From the IMG/VR virus record IMGVR_UViG_3300046466_000192, positions 1 to 55,164 of that record: DNA of 55,164 nucleotides; one strand, given 5' to 3'. Within the stretch, counting starts at the first letter, position 1. Each line of letters starts with the position of its first letter. The notes under the pieces were generated by a model. That model made no database searches and was not told where the DNA came from. It was given only the letters and a program-made list of their open reading frames with translations. This document shows positions 27,659 through 35,017 of this stretch, in pieces. Origin of the DNA: a virus. The translations under genes were made by a program, and so were the position numbers.

Positions 27659-30600
27659 ATGGAAGAATTAGAATTAATTGTTGACCGAATGATAAAAGCC
27701 GGTGAGCCAGAAGAGGCTATTGCTGGAGTAGTTAAGAGTTACACATCGGGAAAGACATCAGACCCAGTAATAAAGGAGGCGAGTACCGGGTCAAAAGAAG
27801 ATACGGCCTCACAATCGGAAGATACTTTTTCGGAATCACCGTTTTGGAACCACGATGAGACCCAAGAAAAACAAGGTTATTTTGAAGAAACTTTTGGTAA
27901 AGGGCTTTTAACAAACTTAGCAGATGACTTTACAAGAATCATTGGTGGTGGTAATGCTCAGGGAGCTGGTGTAAATGAAGCTTTTGATTTATACAAGTTT
28001 GGTCCTGAAATGACAGACGAACAATATCAAGATTTAATTGACGCGTCTAGAAGATTAGAAGAGTATGGTCAAACAGATGAGATGATATACGCTAGCCAGC
28101 AGTATGAAAAATACAAAAAAGAAGGAGATGGTGGTGTTAAAGCTTGGTTAAAAGCTTATATTACTTTAGACAACCCAACAGCTCTACCTCAATACATGGT
28201 TCAGTCTCTTGTTGGTATGGGTAGGTCTTTAGTAGATTCAGAAGAGGTTGCTGGTTTTGCCGCAGCAGGTGCTGGAACTGGTGCTGGTTTAGGCGCAGGT
28301 GGTGGAGCTGCTGTTGGATCTGTTTTTGCGGGAGTAGGTGCTGTTCCCGGTGCTGCGATTGGTGCTAAACTTGGTGCTGTGTCTGGTTTTATGGGTGGTT
28401 TATCAGGTGCTATGGAAACTTCATTAACAACAATGGATCTAGTTAGAGAGAAAGCAATTGAAAACGGTGTTGATTGGAGTAATTCTACAGACGAGCAAAG
28501 AATACAAGCTATAAAAGACATAACAAACAACAAAGAATCTTTTGATGATTTAAAAAGCAAAGCATTAGCAAGAGGTGTAACCATAGGTGTTATAGATGCC
28601 GCAACTGGTGTTGTTACAATGGGTGCTGCAAAAGGTGTTGGAGGACTTACTACTAAAAGCGTTTTAAGCTCAGCTACTAAGCCTTTATCCGCCACAGCTG
28701 CTGCTATAACTGAATCTGGTGGTGGTATAGCTAGTGAGTATTACGGTCAAAAAGCAGCGGGTCAAGAGTTCAATCTTGAAGAAATAATGATAGAAGGCTT
28801 CGCGGATAAAACATTTACAACCGTAGGCATAGCAAAAGGAGCTTTCACTGGTTCACCCAAGTATTCTATAAACGGTGAAACAATGAATGGTAAAAAGTTT
28901 CACGATGCCATAAAGCTAATGGATGACGAGGCTTATGTATCTGCTGATATAAAAGTAGAAAATTCTCCAGCTGTAGAAAGAGTTGTAAATAACAGGCGTA
29001 GTAATATAAATTTAGATCAAAAGGTAGATAGTAGAATAAATAACAGCGATGATAGATCAACGGTTATAAAGTTGATGAAAGAACAAAAGTCTTTAAATAA
29101 AAATAAAGAAGGTAACGCTAGTAGATTAGCTGAGATACAAGAAGAGATAAATACTATAAATGAAAAATACAAAGGCAACAAGGTAGATGTTACTATAGAA
29201 CAAAGAAAACAAGCTGTAGCAAAAGCTATAGATGATAAATTTGAAGCATCGTTTAATAAAAACTTAAAAGCTGTCAAAGAAGCCGCGGCTAAAAAAGATA
29301 CAACCATAGATGTATTTGAAGATGATGACGCTTACTATAATAAGATAGCGGAAAATCAAAATATTACTCCACAAGAGGCTAAAACAAAAGCAAAAGGTAG
29401 TGACGGTGTTTTTGTAGGTAAAGGTCAGATATTCATAAATAAAGCTCAAGCTAAAAAAGTTGGAGCTGTTGGAGTAGCAAGTCATGAATTTTTACACCCT
29501 GTGTTGAACGCCGCTATAGGCAATAGTAAACAACAGGGTAAAATTGTTTCTGATTTTAAAAAATCATTAACTAGCAAACAAAGAGCTTATGTAGATAAAA
29601 AGCTTAAAGCAAACTACGATCCTTCACAGTGGGACACTGAGTATTTAAATATATTTTCTGATGGTATACAAAATGGTGATATAAACTATGATCAAACGTT
29701 GTTTGAAAAGATAGGTGAATCAATAAAAAGATTTTTTGTAGGTCAAGGTTTTGATAATATATCATTTGATAGTGGTAGAGACGTATACAACTTCTTAAAA
29801 GAGTACAATACTAGTATTAAAAAGGAGGGTAAAGTTAGCAAAAAAGCTATGGATGCTATAACAGCAGCTGAGCAAAAGACTGGTAGAAAAGTTGGCAGCG
29901 TTGAAACCGTTGGTAACATGCAGATGTCAAGAACAGAAGACGTTGCTGAGGTAAATAGAATATACGAGGCAAACGAAAATAAAGATATTGCTGGTTTTGA
30001 AATAGCTGATAAGTATAGAGGTATGGCTGAGTCTACTTTTAAATCACTAAGAGATGGTTCTAACTACACTAACGATCAAAAAGATGTACTAGATCAGAAT
30101 AAAGAAGATATAATAGCTATGATGCTTTATGATAAAATACCTAGTCAAAAAGAAACATCAAAAGCTAGAAACGTAGTTGGTTTAGTTAAAGACTTTGTAA
30201 AAGAAAAGCAAAAATATAGAAACGTTGCGGCTTATATAAATACATTTTTTAAAGAAAGATCAAAAGAAGCTTTTAAATACTATGTTAAGGATGCTGTATT
30301 AGAAGGTATGACAACTGAAGATGGTACTCTTAAATCATCTGTTGCTAAAAAAACATCAAAACAGAGTAGTGTAAACCAGGGTAAAGAAGCTAGGAAGTTA
30401 ACCAGCTTTGACAAATTAAAATCTAAAAAAGAATCTTTTTTAACACCAGCTTTAAAAAAATCTATATTTAACGAAGTATCAAAAAATATAAAACTAGTTG
30501 TAGCTAAAACAGGAACTAACCTACAATCAGCTATTAACTCTATGGAAAGCATAGTTAATAACGAGGTTAGAAAAATAGTAACTAAAGACTTAGGTAATAT

Positions 30601-33600
30601 AAGTAAAAAGAAAGGTGAAGTTGTTATTGACGCTAATTATGAATTACATCTTAGAGAAAACTATGATATAAGTATAGCCGCTTTACCTCTTGATGTTATA
30701 AAAAAGTCTTACGGAAAGCTTTTTAATTTAACTAAAACTGGTAGAGAAAAAACAGCTGTAGGTAAAGGTACTTTTCAAATGACAAAGCCTAGTAAAATAG
30801 ACTGGATAAAACATCACACGGTTGGAGGTTACACTACTTTGTTAGCTAGACAAAAAACATATGCTACAAGTATATCTAATGAGTTTGTTAAAAACGAACT
30901 TATAAAACTAAAAAGTGATCCTGTCTTTATGAACGAATTAGCTGATATTGCTAATTTAAGTCAGTCAGATGTAAACGTGACAGCAATAGAAGCTTCTATA
31001 GATAAACTAATAAATGCTTTAGATAGAAAAAAAGGAGAAGCAAAAGGTTTTGACACAACACTTCAGTTTTCAATAACAGAAAATCAAGCTCAAGATATAA
31101 TACAAAACAAAGAGGCTATATTAGAAGGTATAAGACAACTAGGTGATTCTATTACAAGTAGTACGGTTGGCTTAATGCTTAATAAAACCCTAGACCCAGG
31201 TGTTTGGACGTCTAAAGATGTAGCTAACTACAGAGCGGCAATAACAAAAGCTATAACAAAGTTTGTTAAATATGAAGATCAAAATGTTGATTTAAGTAAA
31301 ATGATACTTGAAGAGGTTGCTACAGATTCAGTGGCAACTAATTTGTCTAGAATATTTAATCTAAATTCATTAGATATAGTTGTAAATGGTATTACTCAAA
31401 AGTTTAAAAACTTTGGTCAAATATTTACACTTAAAAAATACGTTTCAAGACAAAGAAATCATTACTTATCTTATGCCGATGAAACTATAAACAGTGTAGA
31501 TGATGTAATAAATCATTTAAAACACTTTAGAGGCCACATGACTAGTGCTGGTAAAAAATATTTTTTAGTAAAAAGAAACCAAATATTTTCAGGAAACCAA
31601 GATTATATAGATAGTTTAAATAAAATATTAGAGCCTAAAAGTATTCGTATAAATGCAGTAACTAAAGGTAATGGAACAAGTATTTTAAGCATAACAGATT
31701 TAGATGGTAATATACTTGAAATTACTGATTCAGAAGGAAACGCTACTGTTTTAAATGAAAAAGGTGTAAAAGCAGCTATAACAACACCGGCTCAATCTGG
31801 TTATGTAGGCAGTGGTAAAACTAAAAGGGTTAAGAGTAAACAAGCTTTTAAAGATGAACTTGATATTAGAAAAAAATCTGCGGACGAAGCTTGGAATAAT
31901 CTAATAAGTTTATTAACCTATATAAAGAAAAACGGTAGTCCACTTGATTTTGCTATGACCATGATGAGTTTAAAATCTAATATGGCTAGTATGTTAAAGG
32001 CTGCGGCGCCTGTAGAATATTATTTTGTTGGGCCAAATGTTGATACTGTTGTTTACGAGCATATAATACCTACTGAATATATAGTGTTAAAACTAACTCA
32101 GCATTTTTATGGCGCTCCTATAGACTTAAACGCTTTAAAAGATAGATATAAAGTGGCTATAGTTCCAGAAATTATGGATAACAACATAAATATACAAAGA
32201 CAAAAGGTCATGCCTGCTTACTGGAACGAGTCTATGCACGAAACTTTAAGGTATTTTGATGAGTTAACTCTTGGTATGAACAACATGTTTGTTATAGAGT
32301 CTTTAACTGATGGTGTTAAATATGGCGAAAATCATGCTAAAGTGTCTAGCTTGCAGTTTTCTAGAACAAATTTAGAAAAACAAACAATGTTAAATAAAGC
32401 AATACAGATAGCTAGAAATCCTTTTGCACCTGAAAAAGGTATTAGTGTATTTGATTTTGACGACACTATAGCTAGATCAAATAGCAAAGTTAGTTATACT
32501 CTTCCTGATGGAACTCAAGGTAAGATAAATGCTACTGAGTTTGCTTTACAGTCTGCGGATCTTGAAGCTGCTGGTGCTACGTTTGATTTTAGCGAGTTTA
32601 ACAAAGTTGTAGAAGGTAAAAAAGGTCCTTTATTTGACCTTGCTATGAGACGACAAGATAAGTTTACAAGTAAAGACATTTTTATATTAACAGCAAGACC
32701 ACAAGAAGCCGCGATAGCAATACACGCTTTTCTAAAAGGATTAGGTCTTACTATACCTATAGAGAATATAACAGGTTTGGCAGATGGTAGGCCATCAGCT
32801 AAGTCTGATTGGATAATAAGTAAGGCGGCTGAAGGTTATAATAATTTTTATTTTGCTGACGACGCTTATAAAAACGTGAAAGCTGTTCAAGATGTTTTAG
32901 ATGTAATAGATGTAAAAAGAGATGTTCAACAAGCTAAACTACAGTTTTCTAGAACAATGGAAGAACAGTTTAACGACATACTAGAACAAACAAAAGGAGT
33001 TAAGTCTGAAAAAAGATTTTCCGACGCAGCAGCTAGATCAAGAGGTAAAGACATTGGTAAGTGGAAGTTTTTCTTACCACCATCAGCAGAAGACTTTGTA
33101 GGTTTAATATATAGCTTTTTAGGAAAAGGCAAAGTTGGTGAAGCTCAAATGGAGTTTTTTAATAAAACTCTTGTTAAACCATTTGCTAGAGCAATGGACG
33201 AGTTGAATAGAACTAAACAAGCTTTAGCTAATAACTTTAGAGCTCTTAAAAAAGCGTATCCAGAGGCTGCTAAAAAATTATCTAAGATAACACCTTATAA
33301 CAATTTTACCTATAGTACAGCTGTTAGAGTTTACATATGGACTAAAGCAGGTATTACGATACCAGGATTATCTAAAACAGATATAAAAAGATTAAATGAA
33401 ATAGTACAAAACGATAAAGAGCTTAAACAGTTTGCTGATGCTATTGATTTAATGACAAAGGAAAGAGGTTTTCCTGCGCCTGGTGAAAACTGGTTAGTGG
33501 GTAACTTAGCAACAGATATAAAAGATATAACCGATAAAGTAGGTAGAAAAGAGTTTTTAGCAGAGTGGATAGCAAATAAAGAAGTTATATTTAGCAAAGA

Positions 33601-35017
33601 AAATTTAAACAAAATAGAGGCTATATATGGTAGTAATTTTAGAGAAGCACTTGAAGATATGCTCTATCGTATGGAAAATGGCACAAATAGGAACTTTGGT
33701 AAGAACAGATTAGTTAATTCTTTCTCAAATTGGGTGAATAATAGTGTAGGTGCTATAATGTTTTTTAACATGAGATCAGCTATACTTCAAACTATATCTT
33801 TTGTTAACTTTATAAACTGGAGTGACAACAACCCTTTGAATTTTGCTAAAGCTATATTAAACACTAAACAGTTTTCTAAAGATTTCGTAACTTTATTTAA
33901 CTCAGACATGCTTAAGCAAAGAAGATCTGGTATTGGTAGAGATGTAAACGAATCTGAGATAGCCGAGGCAATGAGCGGTGCTAGAAACAAACCTCAAGCT
34001 ATATTAAATTATTTGCTCAGAATAGGTTTTACACCAACGCAAATAGCGGATAGCTTTGCAATATCTATGGGTGGAGCTGCTTTTTATAGAAACAGAATAA
34101 ATACATACCTAAAACAAGGTATGACACAGGAGCAAGCTTTAGATCAAGCTTTTAAAGACTTTCAAGAAACTACTGAAGTTTCTCAGCAGTCTTCAAGACC
34201 TGATATGATTAGCCAGCAGCAAGCTGGTCCACTAGGTAGATTAATATTAGCTTTTCAGAATACACCTATGCAGTACACTAGATTAATAAAGAAGGCTTTT
34301 CTTGATTTAATGGCTGGTAGAGGCGATGCTAAAACTAATATGTCTAAAATTTTATACTACGGAGCTGTGCAAAACTTTATATTTGCAGCAATGCAATCAG
34401 CTTTATTTGCAATGCTATTTGACGACGATGAAGATGAAGATAAGTATGGTAAAAAGAAAACTAGAATAGCAAACACAATGACAGATTCTATACTTAGAGG
34501 TTCTGGTATATTTGGAGCTGGTATTTCAACTATGAAAAATATGATATTAAAATTCATGGAACAAGAAGAAAAAGGTTGGAATGCTGATCACGCTTACACG
34601 GTGATAGAAGCGGCTAACTTATCACCACCTATTGGTTCTAAACTAAGAAAATTATATTCTGGTATACAAACATATAAATTTAATAAAGACGTAATATCAC
34701 ATAAAGGTTTTAGCTTAGACAATCCTATATTGCAAACAGGTGGTAATGTGGTTTCAGCTATAACAAATATACCTTTAGATAGAGTTGTTAACAAATACAA
34801 TAATTTAAGAGGAGTTGCTAATAGTAAAAACGAGAGCTGGCAAAGACTAGCCATGCTGCTAGGTTGGAACTCTTGGGATGTTGACGCTGAAATAGATCCT
34901 GAACTTGAAGGTTTAAAAAAGAGATTAAAAAAGAGAAAAAAGTTAAAGAAAAAAATATCAGCTTCTGAAAAAGCTAGAAGAGACGCTATAAGAAAAAAAT
35001 ACTACCAAAATAACTAA
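27659..35017 (+). CDS. Giant multidomain ejection protein with metallopeptidase motif and HAD phosphatase
   Basis: 2452 residues. Visible parts in order: a hydrophobic glycine/alanine-rich stretch (about 195-250); a zinc-metallopeptidase motif HEFLH (H609, E610, H613); a lysine-rich helical middle; a HAD phosphatase domain (about 1596-1757) with DFDDT (D1599, D1601), 'LTARP' and 'FADDA' motifs; then a long helical end with two hydrophobic stretches (about 2030-2050 and 2235-2260) and a very basic C-terminus. Four '(L/M)Q(F/M)S(R/I)T' motifs begin at residues 754, 1135, 1565 and 1761. By size and position it matches T7 gp16-type ejection proteins and the 'large polyvalent proteins' of phages. 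Likely delivered into the host with the DNA. Activities are inferred from motifs. Confidence 0.75.
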   Translation: MEELELIVDRMIKAGEPEEAIAGVVKSYTSGKTSDPVIKEASTGSKEDTASQSEDTFSESPFWNHDETQEKQGYFEETFGKGLLTNLADDFTRIIGGGNAQGAGVNEAFDLYKFGPEMTDEQYQDLIDASRRLEEYGQTDEMIYASQQYEKYKKEGDGGVKAWLKAYITLDNPTALPQYMVQSLVGMGRSLVDSEEVAGFAAAGAGTGAGLGAGGGAAVGSVFAGVGAVPGAAIGAKLGAVSGFMGGLSGAMETSLTTMDLVREKAIENGVDWSNSTDEQRIQAIKDITNNKESFDDLKSKALARGVTIGVIDAATGVVTMGAAKGVGGLTTKSVLSSATKPLSATAAAITESGGGIASEYYGQKAAGQEFNLEEIMIEGFADKTFTTVGIAKGAFTGSPKYSINGETMNGKKFHDAIKLMDDEAYVSADIKVENSPAVERVVNNRRSNINLDQKVDSRINNSDDRSTVIKLMKEQKSLNKNKEGNASRLAEIQEEINTINEKYKGNKVDVTIEQRKQAVAKAIDDKFEASFNKNLKAVKEAAAKKDTTIDVFEDDDAYYNKIAENQNITPQEAKTKAKGSDGVFVGKGQIFINKAQAKKVGAVGVASHEFLHPVLNAAIGNSKQQGKIVSDFKKSLTSKQRAYVDKKLKANYDPSQWDTEYLNIFSDGIQNGDINYDQTLFEKIGESIKRFFVGQGFDNISFDSGRDVYNFLKEYNTSIKKEGKVSKKAMDAITAAEQKTGRKVGSVETVGNMQMSRTEDVAEVNRIYEANENKDIAGFEIADKYRGMAESTFKSLRDGSNYTNDQKDVLDQNKEDIIAMMLYDKIPSQKETSKARNVVGLVKDFVKEKQKYRNVAAYINTFFKERSKEAFKYYVKDAVLEGMTTEDGTLKSSVAKKTSKQSSVNQGKEARKLTSFDKLKSKKESFLTPALKKSIFNEVSKNIKLVVAKTGTNLQSAINSMESIVNNEVRKIVTKDLGNISKKKGEVVIDANYELHLRENYDISIAALPLDVIKKSYGKLFNLTKTGREKTAVGKGTFQMTKPSKIDWIKHHTVGGYTTLLARQKTYATSISNEFVKNELIKLKSDPVFMNELADIANLSQSDVNVTAIEASIDKLINALDRKKGEAKGFDTTLQFSITENQAQDIIQNKEAILEGIRQLGDSITSSTVGLMLNKTLDPGVWTSKDVANYRAAITKAITKFVKYEDQNVDLSKMILEEVATDSVATNLSRIFNLNSLDIVVNGITQKFKNFGQIFTLKKYVSRQRNHYLSYADETINSVDDVINHLKHFRGHMTSAGKKYFLVKRNQIFSGNQDYIDSLNKILEPKSIRINAVTKGNGTSILSITDLDGNILEITDSEGNATVLNEKGVKAAITTPAQSGYVGSGKTKRVKSKQAFKDELDIRKKSADEAWNNLISLLTYIKKNGSPLDFAMTMMSLKSNMASMLKAAAPVEYYFVGPNVDTVVYEHIIPTEYIVLKLTQHFYGAPIDLNALKDRYKVAIVPEIMDNNINIQRQKVMPAYWNESMHETLRYFDELTLGMNNMFVIESLTDGVKYGENHAKVSSLQFSRTNLEKQTMLNKAIQIARNPFAPEKGISVFDFDDTIARSNSKVSYTLPDGTQGKINATEFALQSADLEAAGATFDFSEFNKVVEGKKGPLFDLAMRRQDKFTSKDIFILTARPQEAAIAIHAFLKGLGLTIPIENITGLADGRPSAKSDWIISKAAEGYNNFYFADDAYKNVKAVQDVLDVIDVKRDVQQAKLQFSRTMEEQFNDILEQTKGVKSEKRFSDAAARSRGKDIGKWKFFLPPSAEDFVGLIYSFLGKGKVGEAQMEFFNKTLVKPFARAMDELNRTKQALANNFRALKKAYPEAAKKLSKITPYNNFTYSTAVRVYIWTKAGITIPGLSKTDIKRLNEIVQNDKELKQFADAIDLMTKERGFPAPGENWLVGNLATDIKDITDKVGRKEFLAEWIANKEVIFSKENLNKIEAIYGSNFREALEDMLYRMENGTNRNFGKNRLVNSFSNWVNNSVGAIMFFNMRSAILQTISFVNFINWSDNNPLNFAKAILNTKQFSKDFVTLFNSDMLKQRRSGIGRDVNESEIAEAMSGARNKPQAILNYLLRIGFTPTQIADSFAISMGGAAFYRNRINTYLKQGMTQEQALDQAFKDFQETTEVSQQSSRPDMISQQQAGPLGRLILAFQNTPMQYTRLIKKAFLDLMAGRGDAKTNMSKILYYGAVQNFIFAAMQSALFAMLFDDDEDEDKYGKKKTRIANTMTDSILRGSGIFGAGISTMKNMILKFMEQEEKGWNADHAYTVIEAANLSPPIGSKLRKLYSGIQTYKFNKDVISHKGFSLDNPILQTGGNVVSAITNIPLDRVVNKYNNLRGVANSKNESWQRLAMLLGWNSWDVDAEIDPELEGLKKRLKKRKKLKKKISASEKARRDAIRKKYYQNN

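What the first reader, a model, noticed from the sequence alone, without database searches (positions are those of the whole stretch)
27659..35017. Recurrent QFSRT-type motifs suggest a self-processing polyprotein
The motif (L/M)Q(F/M)S(R/I)T occurs at residues 754, 1135, 1565 and 1761 of the 2452-residue internal protein. The last two copies are identical (LQFSRT), share 16 bases of DNA (cagttttctagaacaa) and bracket the HAD domain (about 1596-1757). The HEFLH metallopeptidase motif (609-613) lies before the first copy. This suggests conserved linkers or cleavage sites that would release separate effector domains, perhaps by the built-in peptidase.
Basis: partly seen in the sequence, partly recalled or inferred. 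Interest (0 to 1): 0.78.

Follow-up and report, generated by a model that had tools for sequence, protein, structure and literature searches.

The report
Junction motif in injected phage protein
A giant protein that a marine phage probably injects into its host carries the same short amino-acid tag between its exchangeable domains, and across dozens of related phages the tags within one protein change together, as expected if one enzyme, perhaps the protein's own peptidase, reads them all to cut the protein into parts.

Summary
The four motif copies, HEFLH and the repeated 16-mer are where stated. In the window alone the repeat is not statistically remarkable; comparison makes it so. Across 71 full-length homologues from uncultivated phages, [VIL][KQ]FS[KR]x occurs 66 times against 1.3 in shuffles. 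It is essentially confined to this protein: 86 copies, against one chance hit in neighbouring proteins. Copies lie where homology between modules breaks, mostly in low-confidence linkers of AlphaFold models. Copies in one protein change together (Q, K or M before F; FSEK, AKLSEN, FSKR variants). They match each other better than the nearest relative's copies, and they tend to be lost together. This points to one shared reader. The protein is a phage-type polyvalent protein with an invariant HExxH...E zincin, a T4-Pnkp-like HAD module and a polyvalent-type C-terminal domain. Self-processing of such proteins was proposed in 2017; I found no described cleavage-site motif. Cleavage is not shown. 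The link to the built-in peptidase is suggestive only: one homologue with a broken HExxH keeps the motif, and a neighbouring gene covaries as strongly. Interpretation: partly supported. New variant of a known kind; interest 0.62.

The parts
27659..35017 (+). giant phage-type polyvalent protein, 2452 aa, in the virion gene block downstream of the muzzle-like gene
   Evidence: C-terminal fold matches phage polyvalent proteins; the syntenic giant of Cellulophaga phage phi40:1 (gp101) is annotated as a virion protein by MS/MS
29306..29863 (+). zincin-like metallopeptidase domain (about residues 550-735); HEFLH 609-613 plus invariant E661
   Evidence: H609, E610, H613 and E661 aligned in 68 of 68 homologues used; AF2 topology strand-helix-strands-HExxH helix-E helix agrees with the published description of polyvalent MPTases
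29918..29935 (+). junction motif copy 1, MQMSRT (754-759)
   Evidence: predicted short strand, pLDDT about 71-74; conserved only in part of the family
29936..31048 (+). exchangeable module A (about 760-1130); its first 120 aa weakly resemble sigma-70 region 2
   Evidence: homology coverage falls from 46 to about 17 of 70 relatives here; VIA Z 6.7 to sigma70; homologue L066 to Sigma70_r2 E 0.009, below cut-off
31061..31078 (+). junction motif copy 2, LQFSIT (1135-1140)
   Evidence: aligned column F 54/71, S 56/71; in linker with pLDDT < 50
31079..32338 (+). exchangeable module B (about 1141-1560), function unknown
   Evidence: shared by only about 6 of 70 relatives
32351..32368 (+). junction motif copy 3, LQFSRT (1565-1570)
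   Evidence: in segment with pLDDT < 50
32426..32929 (+). HAD phosphatase module (about 1590-1757), T4 Pnkp 3'-phosphatase-like
   Evidence: VIA Z 13.1, rmsd 2.3, 126 residues to 5uj0_B
32939..32956 (+). junction motif copy 4, LQFSRT (1761-1766)
   Evidence: aligned column F 53/71, S 61/71; coincides with the six-residue pLDDT < 50 dip 226-231 of model 2
32966..35014 (+). conserved helical C-terminal domain (about 1770-2452), free of the motif
   Evidence: shared by all 70 relatives; structural matches to 'large polyvalent protein associated' and 'ART-PolyVal' phage proteins

Best explanation
The ORF encodes a virion-carried polyvalent protein: an N-terminal part and a zincin peptidase, then a string of exchangeable effector modules ending with an HAD phosphatase, then a conserved C-terminal domain. 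A short linear motif, about [VIL]-[KQM]-F-S-[KR]-[ST], sits in the flexible junctions between these modules. All copies in one protein are read by the same partner, most likely a peptidase that cuts there, in the capsid or after injection, and frees the modules. The best candidate is the built-in HExxH...E zincin. By analogy with zincins that prefer a bulky residue after the cut, cleavage just before F is plausible. In the window this would give pieces of about 1-755, 756-1136, 1137-1566, 1567-1762 and 1763-2452. Shown by computation: motif enrichment, confinement to this protein, junction placement, co-evolution of copies, intact zincin signature. Inferred: that the partner is a peptidase, that it is the built-in one, the exact bond, and the timing.
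For: Enrichment and confinement to the giant. Copies cluster at fixed places: after the peptidase, about 550 aa after it, just before and just after the HAD module; almost none in the C-terminal domain. Site 2 follows several non-homologous upstream segments that all end in xFSx. AF2 pLDDT < 50 at sites 2, 3 and 4. Concordance within a protein: site 2-site 4 p=2e-4, also among relatives under 60% identical; 28 better and 6 worse than the nearest relative; control column pairs -0.002 +/- 0.048 (max 0.13) against +0.11 to +0.32 for motif positions. Copies tend to be lost together (Fisher p=5e-4; 0.018 non-redundant). Identity-based partial Mantel: motif follows peptidase given HAD and C-term (site 2 p=0.001, site 4 p=0.018). 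Giants of phi40:1, phi46:3 and phi19:3 lack both HExxH and the motif. No prohead protease was recognised among the late genes tested in the window.
Against: No cleavage data exist. Homologue L062 has lost the first His of HExxH (EELFH) but keeps KFSK motifs, and L045 has HDAFH. With alignment scores instead of identities the coupling to the peptidase is weaker (p 0.06, 0.08, 0.012), and the upstream neighbour gene covaries as well (p 0.01). About a fifth of homologues lack site 2 or site 4, and several MAG-derived homologues with HExxH lack the motif. N4 vRNAP, which has a similar HExxH domain, is packaged unprocessed (PMC5512222) and lacks the motif. Site 1 is modelled as a strand, not a loop.
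Confidence: 0.5

Rival explanations
1. Uncut docking or threading motif. The copies are binding sites for a virion, ejection or chaperone partner that spaces and feeds the giant protein through the portal and tail, or unfolds it module by module, without cleavage.
For: Explains several identical linker motifs, co-evolution with one partner and confinement to the ejected protein. Related phage giants such as N4 vRNAP are injected uncut. The upstream neighbour gene covaries with the motif too, and L062 keeps the motif with a broken peptidase.
Against: Does not explain why the motif lies downstream of the peptidase and avoids the N-terminal third and the C-terminal domain, or why giants without HExxH lack it.
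Confidence: 0.25
2. Processing by another protease. A host enzyme or a separate phage enzyme cuts the motif, and the variants reflect that enzyme in each host or genome.
For: Within-protein concordance needs only one reader, not the built-in one. L062 and L045 have altered HExxH sites yet carry motifs.
Against: No other virion or maturation protease was recognised in the window's late genes. Other virion proteins of these phages lack the motif. Variants follow the built-in peptidase better than the HAD or C-terminal domain.
Confidence: 0.15
3. Recombination joints. The copies are short DNA repeats at which modules are swapped, kept alike by recombination or gene conversion, with no role in the protein.
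For: Window copies 3 and 4 share 16 bases. Codons of sites 2 and 4 agree somewhat more within a protein than between proteins (0.67 against 0.58, p=0.002). Modules do change at the motif.
Against: A third of same-residue codons differ within a protein and Ser codons differ in half of cases, while F-S and the variants persist across relatives about 50% identical; selection on protein is needed.
Confidence: 0.07
4. Chance resemblance of common residues in a K/S-rich protein.
For: In the window protein alone repeated 6-mers are no more common than in shuffles.
Against: 66 against 1.3 in the family, fixed places, concordance controls.
Confidence: 0.02

Closest known systems
Phage-type polyvalent proteins with zincin MPTase (Iyer et al. 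2017, PMC5512222)
   Same: Giant multidomain injected protein, zincin HExxH...E domain, swapped effector domains, C-terminal domain of the polyvalent type; self-processing already proposed there
   Different: Pfam MPTase-PolyVal and LPD models do not match; a recurrent junction motif that co-evolves within each protein is not described there
N4 virion RNA polymerase (giant ejected protein with HExxH domain)
   Same: Giant virion protein of a podovirus with an HExxH domain and a large helical C-terminal part
   Different: N4 vRNAP is packaged unprocessed (PMC5512222) and carries no such motif
P1 DdrB / DarA (processed internal head proteins)
   Same: Injected polyvalent-type proteins that are proteolytically processed; DdrB has HELGH
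   Different: No recurrent xFSx motif
Prohead-protease processing of ejection proteins (SPN3US, phiKZ-like phages)
   Same: Short recognition sites cut in injected proteins
   Different: There a separate prohead protease acts on many head proteins; here the motif is confined to one protein and no such protease was recognised
Crassvirales cargo proteins gp45-gp50 (phicrAss001)
   Same: Related muzzle gene, similar gene order, giant cargo behind the muzzle gene
   Different: Those are RNA polymerase-related and lack the repeated motif

Membership tests
Phage-type polyvalent protein | one giant polypeptide joining several unrelated effector domains | tested here: met
   zincin, variable modules, HAD (Pnkp-like) and C-terminal domain; other members carry AAA_33 or Zeta-toxin kinases
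Phage-type polyvalent protein | C-terminal domain typical of phage polyvalent proteins | tested here: met
   Foldseek hits to LPD, ART-PolyVal and MuF-type phage proteins, E 1e-14 to 1e-5; no Pfam LPD hit by sequence in the 17 members scanned
Phage-type polyvalent protein | packaged in the virion and injected | not tested
   gene position only; the syntenic phi40:1 gp101 is a virion protein by MS/MS annotation, but it is not shown to be a homologue
Zincin MPTase of polyvalent proteins | HExxH plus Glu in the next conserved helix | tested here: met
   H609, E610, H613 and E661 in 68 of 68 aligned homologues; helices 107-120 and 156-172 of the model
Zincin MPTase of polyvalent proteins | match to Pfam MPTase-PolyVal (PF18818) | tested here: not met
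   no match in the window; so similar in kind, not a member of that Pfam family
Zincin MPTase of polyvalent proteins | zincin fold by structure comparison | tested here: inconclusive
   the 681-residue model gave no clear PDB match
Self-processing polyprotein | cleavage between domains at a common site | not testable with these tools
   only indirect evidence: motif placement and co-evolution
F|S autoproteolysis (Nup98/FIIND type) | essential Ser after Phe in a folded H-F-S site | tested here: not met
   no His before F; Ser is replaced by Ala at aligned sites (L001 LQFART, L044 IQFAKS)
Crassvirales-like podovirus | crassvirus muzzle and capsid proteins | tested here: inconclusive
   muzzle over Pfam cut-off; capsid weak (E 0.02); terminase hits are Elemovirus and Cellulophaga phages

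The most novel reading that the evidence does not exclude
Injected phage polyvalent proteins carry a lineage-specific self-cleavage code: one built-in zincin and its set of junction motifs co-evolve, so that effector modules can be swapped in freely as long as they end in the current code, and related codes (RFSL, FYSR) exist in polyvalent proteins of other phages and prophages.
Probability: 0.3. Interest if true: 0.82.

Novelty: new variant of a known kind. Interest (0 to 1): 0.62.

Why it matters
Why polyvalent phage proteins so often carry a metallopeptidase has been an open question since 2017; self-processing was proposed, but in the papers I searched I found no described cut sites. A conserved, co-evolving junction motif gives exact, testable sites and a rule for how such proteins gain and lose effector modules, and it could help to mark domain borders in unannotated giant phage proteins.

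Tried and rejected
Whole-protein tblastn against named phages: no match. PDB sequence searches with profiles of both halves: none. Foldseek and VIA with the 681-residue model: no clear zincin match; not evidence of absence. Generic repeated 6-mer search in single proteins: no power. Apparent gene splits near the motif (L007, L035 and others) look like frameshifts in the assemblies, not natural fissions. Generality in 19 other polyvalent giants (LPD38 or similar C-terminal parts): only weak, [RKQM][FY]S[RKL] 16 against 8.5 +/- 3.2; L146 (RFSL three times) and L143 (FSR/YSR) are suggestive. P1 DarA/DdrB, N4 vRNAP: no motif. phicrAss001 cargo: no repeated motif, one single copy in gp49. Papers: in the library searched I found no report of such a junction motif.

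Full report
What was checked. The 2452-aa ORF at 27659-35017 holds MQMSRT 754, LQFSIT 1135, LQFSRT 1565 and LQFSRT 1761, HEFLH 609-613, and a 16-base repeat at 32354 and 32942.

Relatives. The whole protein finds no named phage. Scans of IMG/VR gave four loci, then, with a profile of the C-terminal part, 80 more out of at least 455 that encode a relative. Seventy-one distinct full-length homologues of 2055-3789 aa were compared. The phage has a crassvirus-like muzzle gene and terminase hits to Elemovirus, Cellulophaga, Tenacibaculum and Maribacter phages. In Cellulophaga phage phi40:1 the giant in the same gene position is annotated as a virion protein by MS/MS.

The motif is real. [VIL][KQ]FS[KR][STNDAKVEG] occurs 66 times against 1.3 in shuffles, and FS[KR] 236 times against 76. 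In other ORFs of the same loci there is one chance hit plus two in frameshifted pieces of the giant. In aligned, unselected columns F is present in 54 of 71 at site 2 and 53 of 71 at site 4, S in 56 and 61; the residue before F is K, Q or M, the residue after S mostly K. Ser can be Ala and Phe can be Tyr or Leu, so Ser is not a required nucleophile.

It marks junctions. Local homology to the window protein is shared by about 46 of 70 relatives across the peptidase, about 17 between sites 1 and 2, about 6 between sites 2 and 3, and all 70 from the HAD onward. The steps fall at the motif. Motifs pile up 0-100 aa before and 100-200 aa after the HAD start and 500-600 aa after HExxH, and almost none lie in the C-terminal domain. 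At site 2 several non-homologous upstream segments (ERGNVKFSK, RDPNVKFSK, GTPEVMFSK, FDIIQFSK) end in the same motif. In AlphaFold2 models site 2 lies in a segment with pLDDT < 50, site 3 in another, and site 4 coincides with a six-residue dip below 50 between HAD and C-terminal domain. Site 1 is modelled as a short strand.

Copies in one protein change together. Examples: Q before F in the window clade, FS[ED]K in L073, AKLSEN twice in L036, FSKR in L084, VM[FY]SK in L041. Site 2 and site 4 are more alike within a protein than across proteins (p=2e-4, also in a set under 60% identical), and more alike than site 2 with the nearest relative's site 4 in 28 cases against 6. Column pairs elsewhere give -0.002 +/- 0.048; motif positions give +0.11 to +0.32. 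Sites 2 and 4 also tend to be lost together (p=5e-4; 0.018 in a reduced set). Codon agreement is slightly raised, but a third of same-residue codons differ, so selection acts on the protein. For sites 1 and 3 the copy was picked from several candidates, so their concordance is less clean than for sites 2 and 4.

Who reads it. The upstream domain has H609, E610, H613 and E661 in all 68 aligned homologues. Its modelled topology agrees with the published description of polyvalent zincins (PMC5512222), though Pfam's MPTase-PolyVal model does not match. Identity-based partial Mantel tests tie motif variants to this domain after HAD and C-terminal identity are removed (site 2 p=0.001, site 4 p=0.018). 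With alignment scores the link is weaker (p 0.012 to 0.08), and the upstream neighbour gene covaries too. L062 has EELFH and L045 HDAFH, and L062 still carries KFSK motifs. The peptidase is therefore the leading, not the proven, reader. No other maturation protease was recognised among the late genes tested.

Modules. The HAD module is closest to T4 Pnkp 3'-phosphatase (Z 13.1, 126 residues, rmsd 2.3). Module A begins with a region weakly like sigma-70 region 2 (Z 6.7, helical, so weak; one homologue to Sigma70_r2 at E 0.009, below cut-off). Two of 17 members scanned carry AAA_33 or Zeta-toxin kinases. The C-terminal domain matches phage proteins annotated as large polyvalent or ART-PolyVal. 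So the protein belongs with phage-type polyvalent proteins.

How general. P1 DarA/DdrB and N4 vRNAP lack the motif. phicrAss001 cargo proteins have a single copy in gp49 and no repeats. In 19 other polyvalent giants the signal is weak, with two suggestive cases. Some members from MAG contigs lack the motif.

Verdict. Observation confirmed. A junction motif read by one shared partner is well supported; cleavage by the built-in zincin is the most likely mechanism but undemonstrated (0.5). Self-processing of polyvalent proteins was proposed in 2017; what I did not find described is a recurrent, co-evolving site. The paper library is not complete, so the novelty claim is limited to what was searched.

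Noticed in passing
window 32426-32929: HAD module of the giant protein resembles the T4 polynucleotide kinase 3'-phosphatase; an injected nucleic-acid end-healing activity is possible.
   Followed up: partly
window 29936-30313; L066 7649-8008: Module after site 1 weakly resembles sigma-70 region 2; an injected sigma-like effector would be notable.
   Followed up: partly
window 47940-48698 (-): Separate sigma-factor gene (PHROG 351, E 6e-21; Pfam regions 2 and 4 just under cut-off).
   Followed up: no
L146 translated giant, residues 2085, 2369, 2640: A prophage polyvalent protein with LPD38 carries RFSL three times at spaced positions, possibly a related code.
   Followed up: partly
L007, L030, L035, L039: Giant ORF split by apparent frameshifts in metagenome assemblies; in L007 the break lies next to site 2.
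   Followed up: yes
L097, L098, L099: Members of this phage family sit in a MAG labelled Woesearchaeota; likely viral contigs binned wrongly.
   Followed up: no
window 28856-28873 (residues 400-405 of the giant): PKYSIN at residue 400 (also in L001 and similar to the motif) may be a further copy before the peptidase.
   Followed up: no
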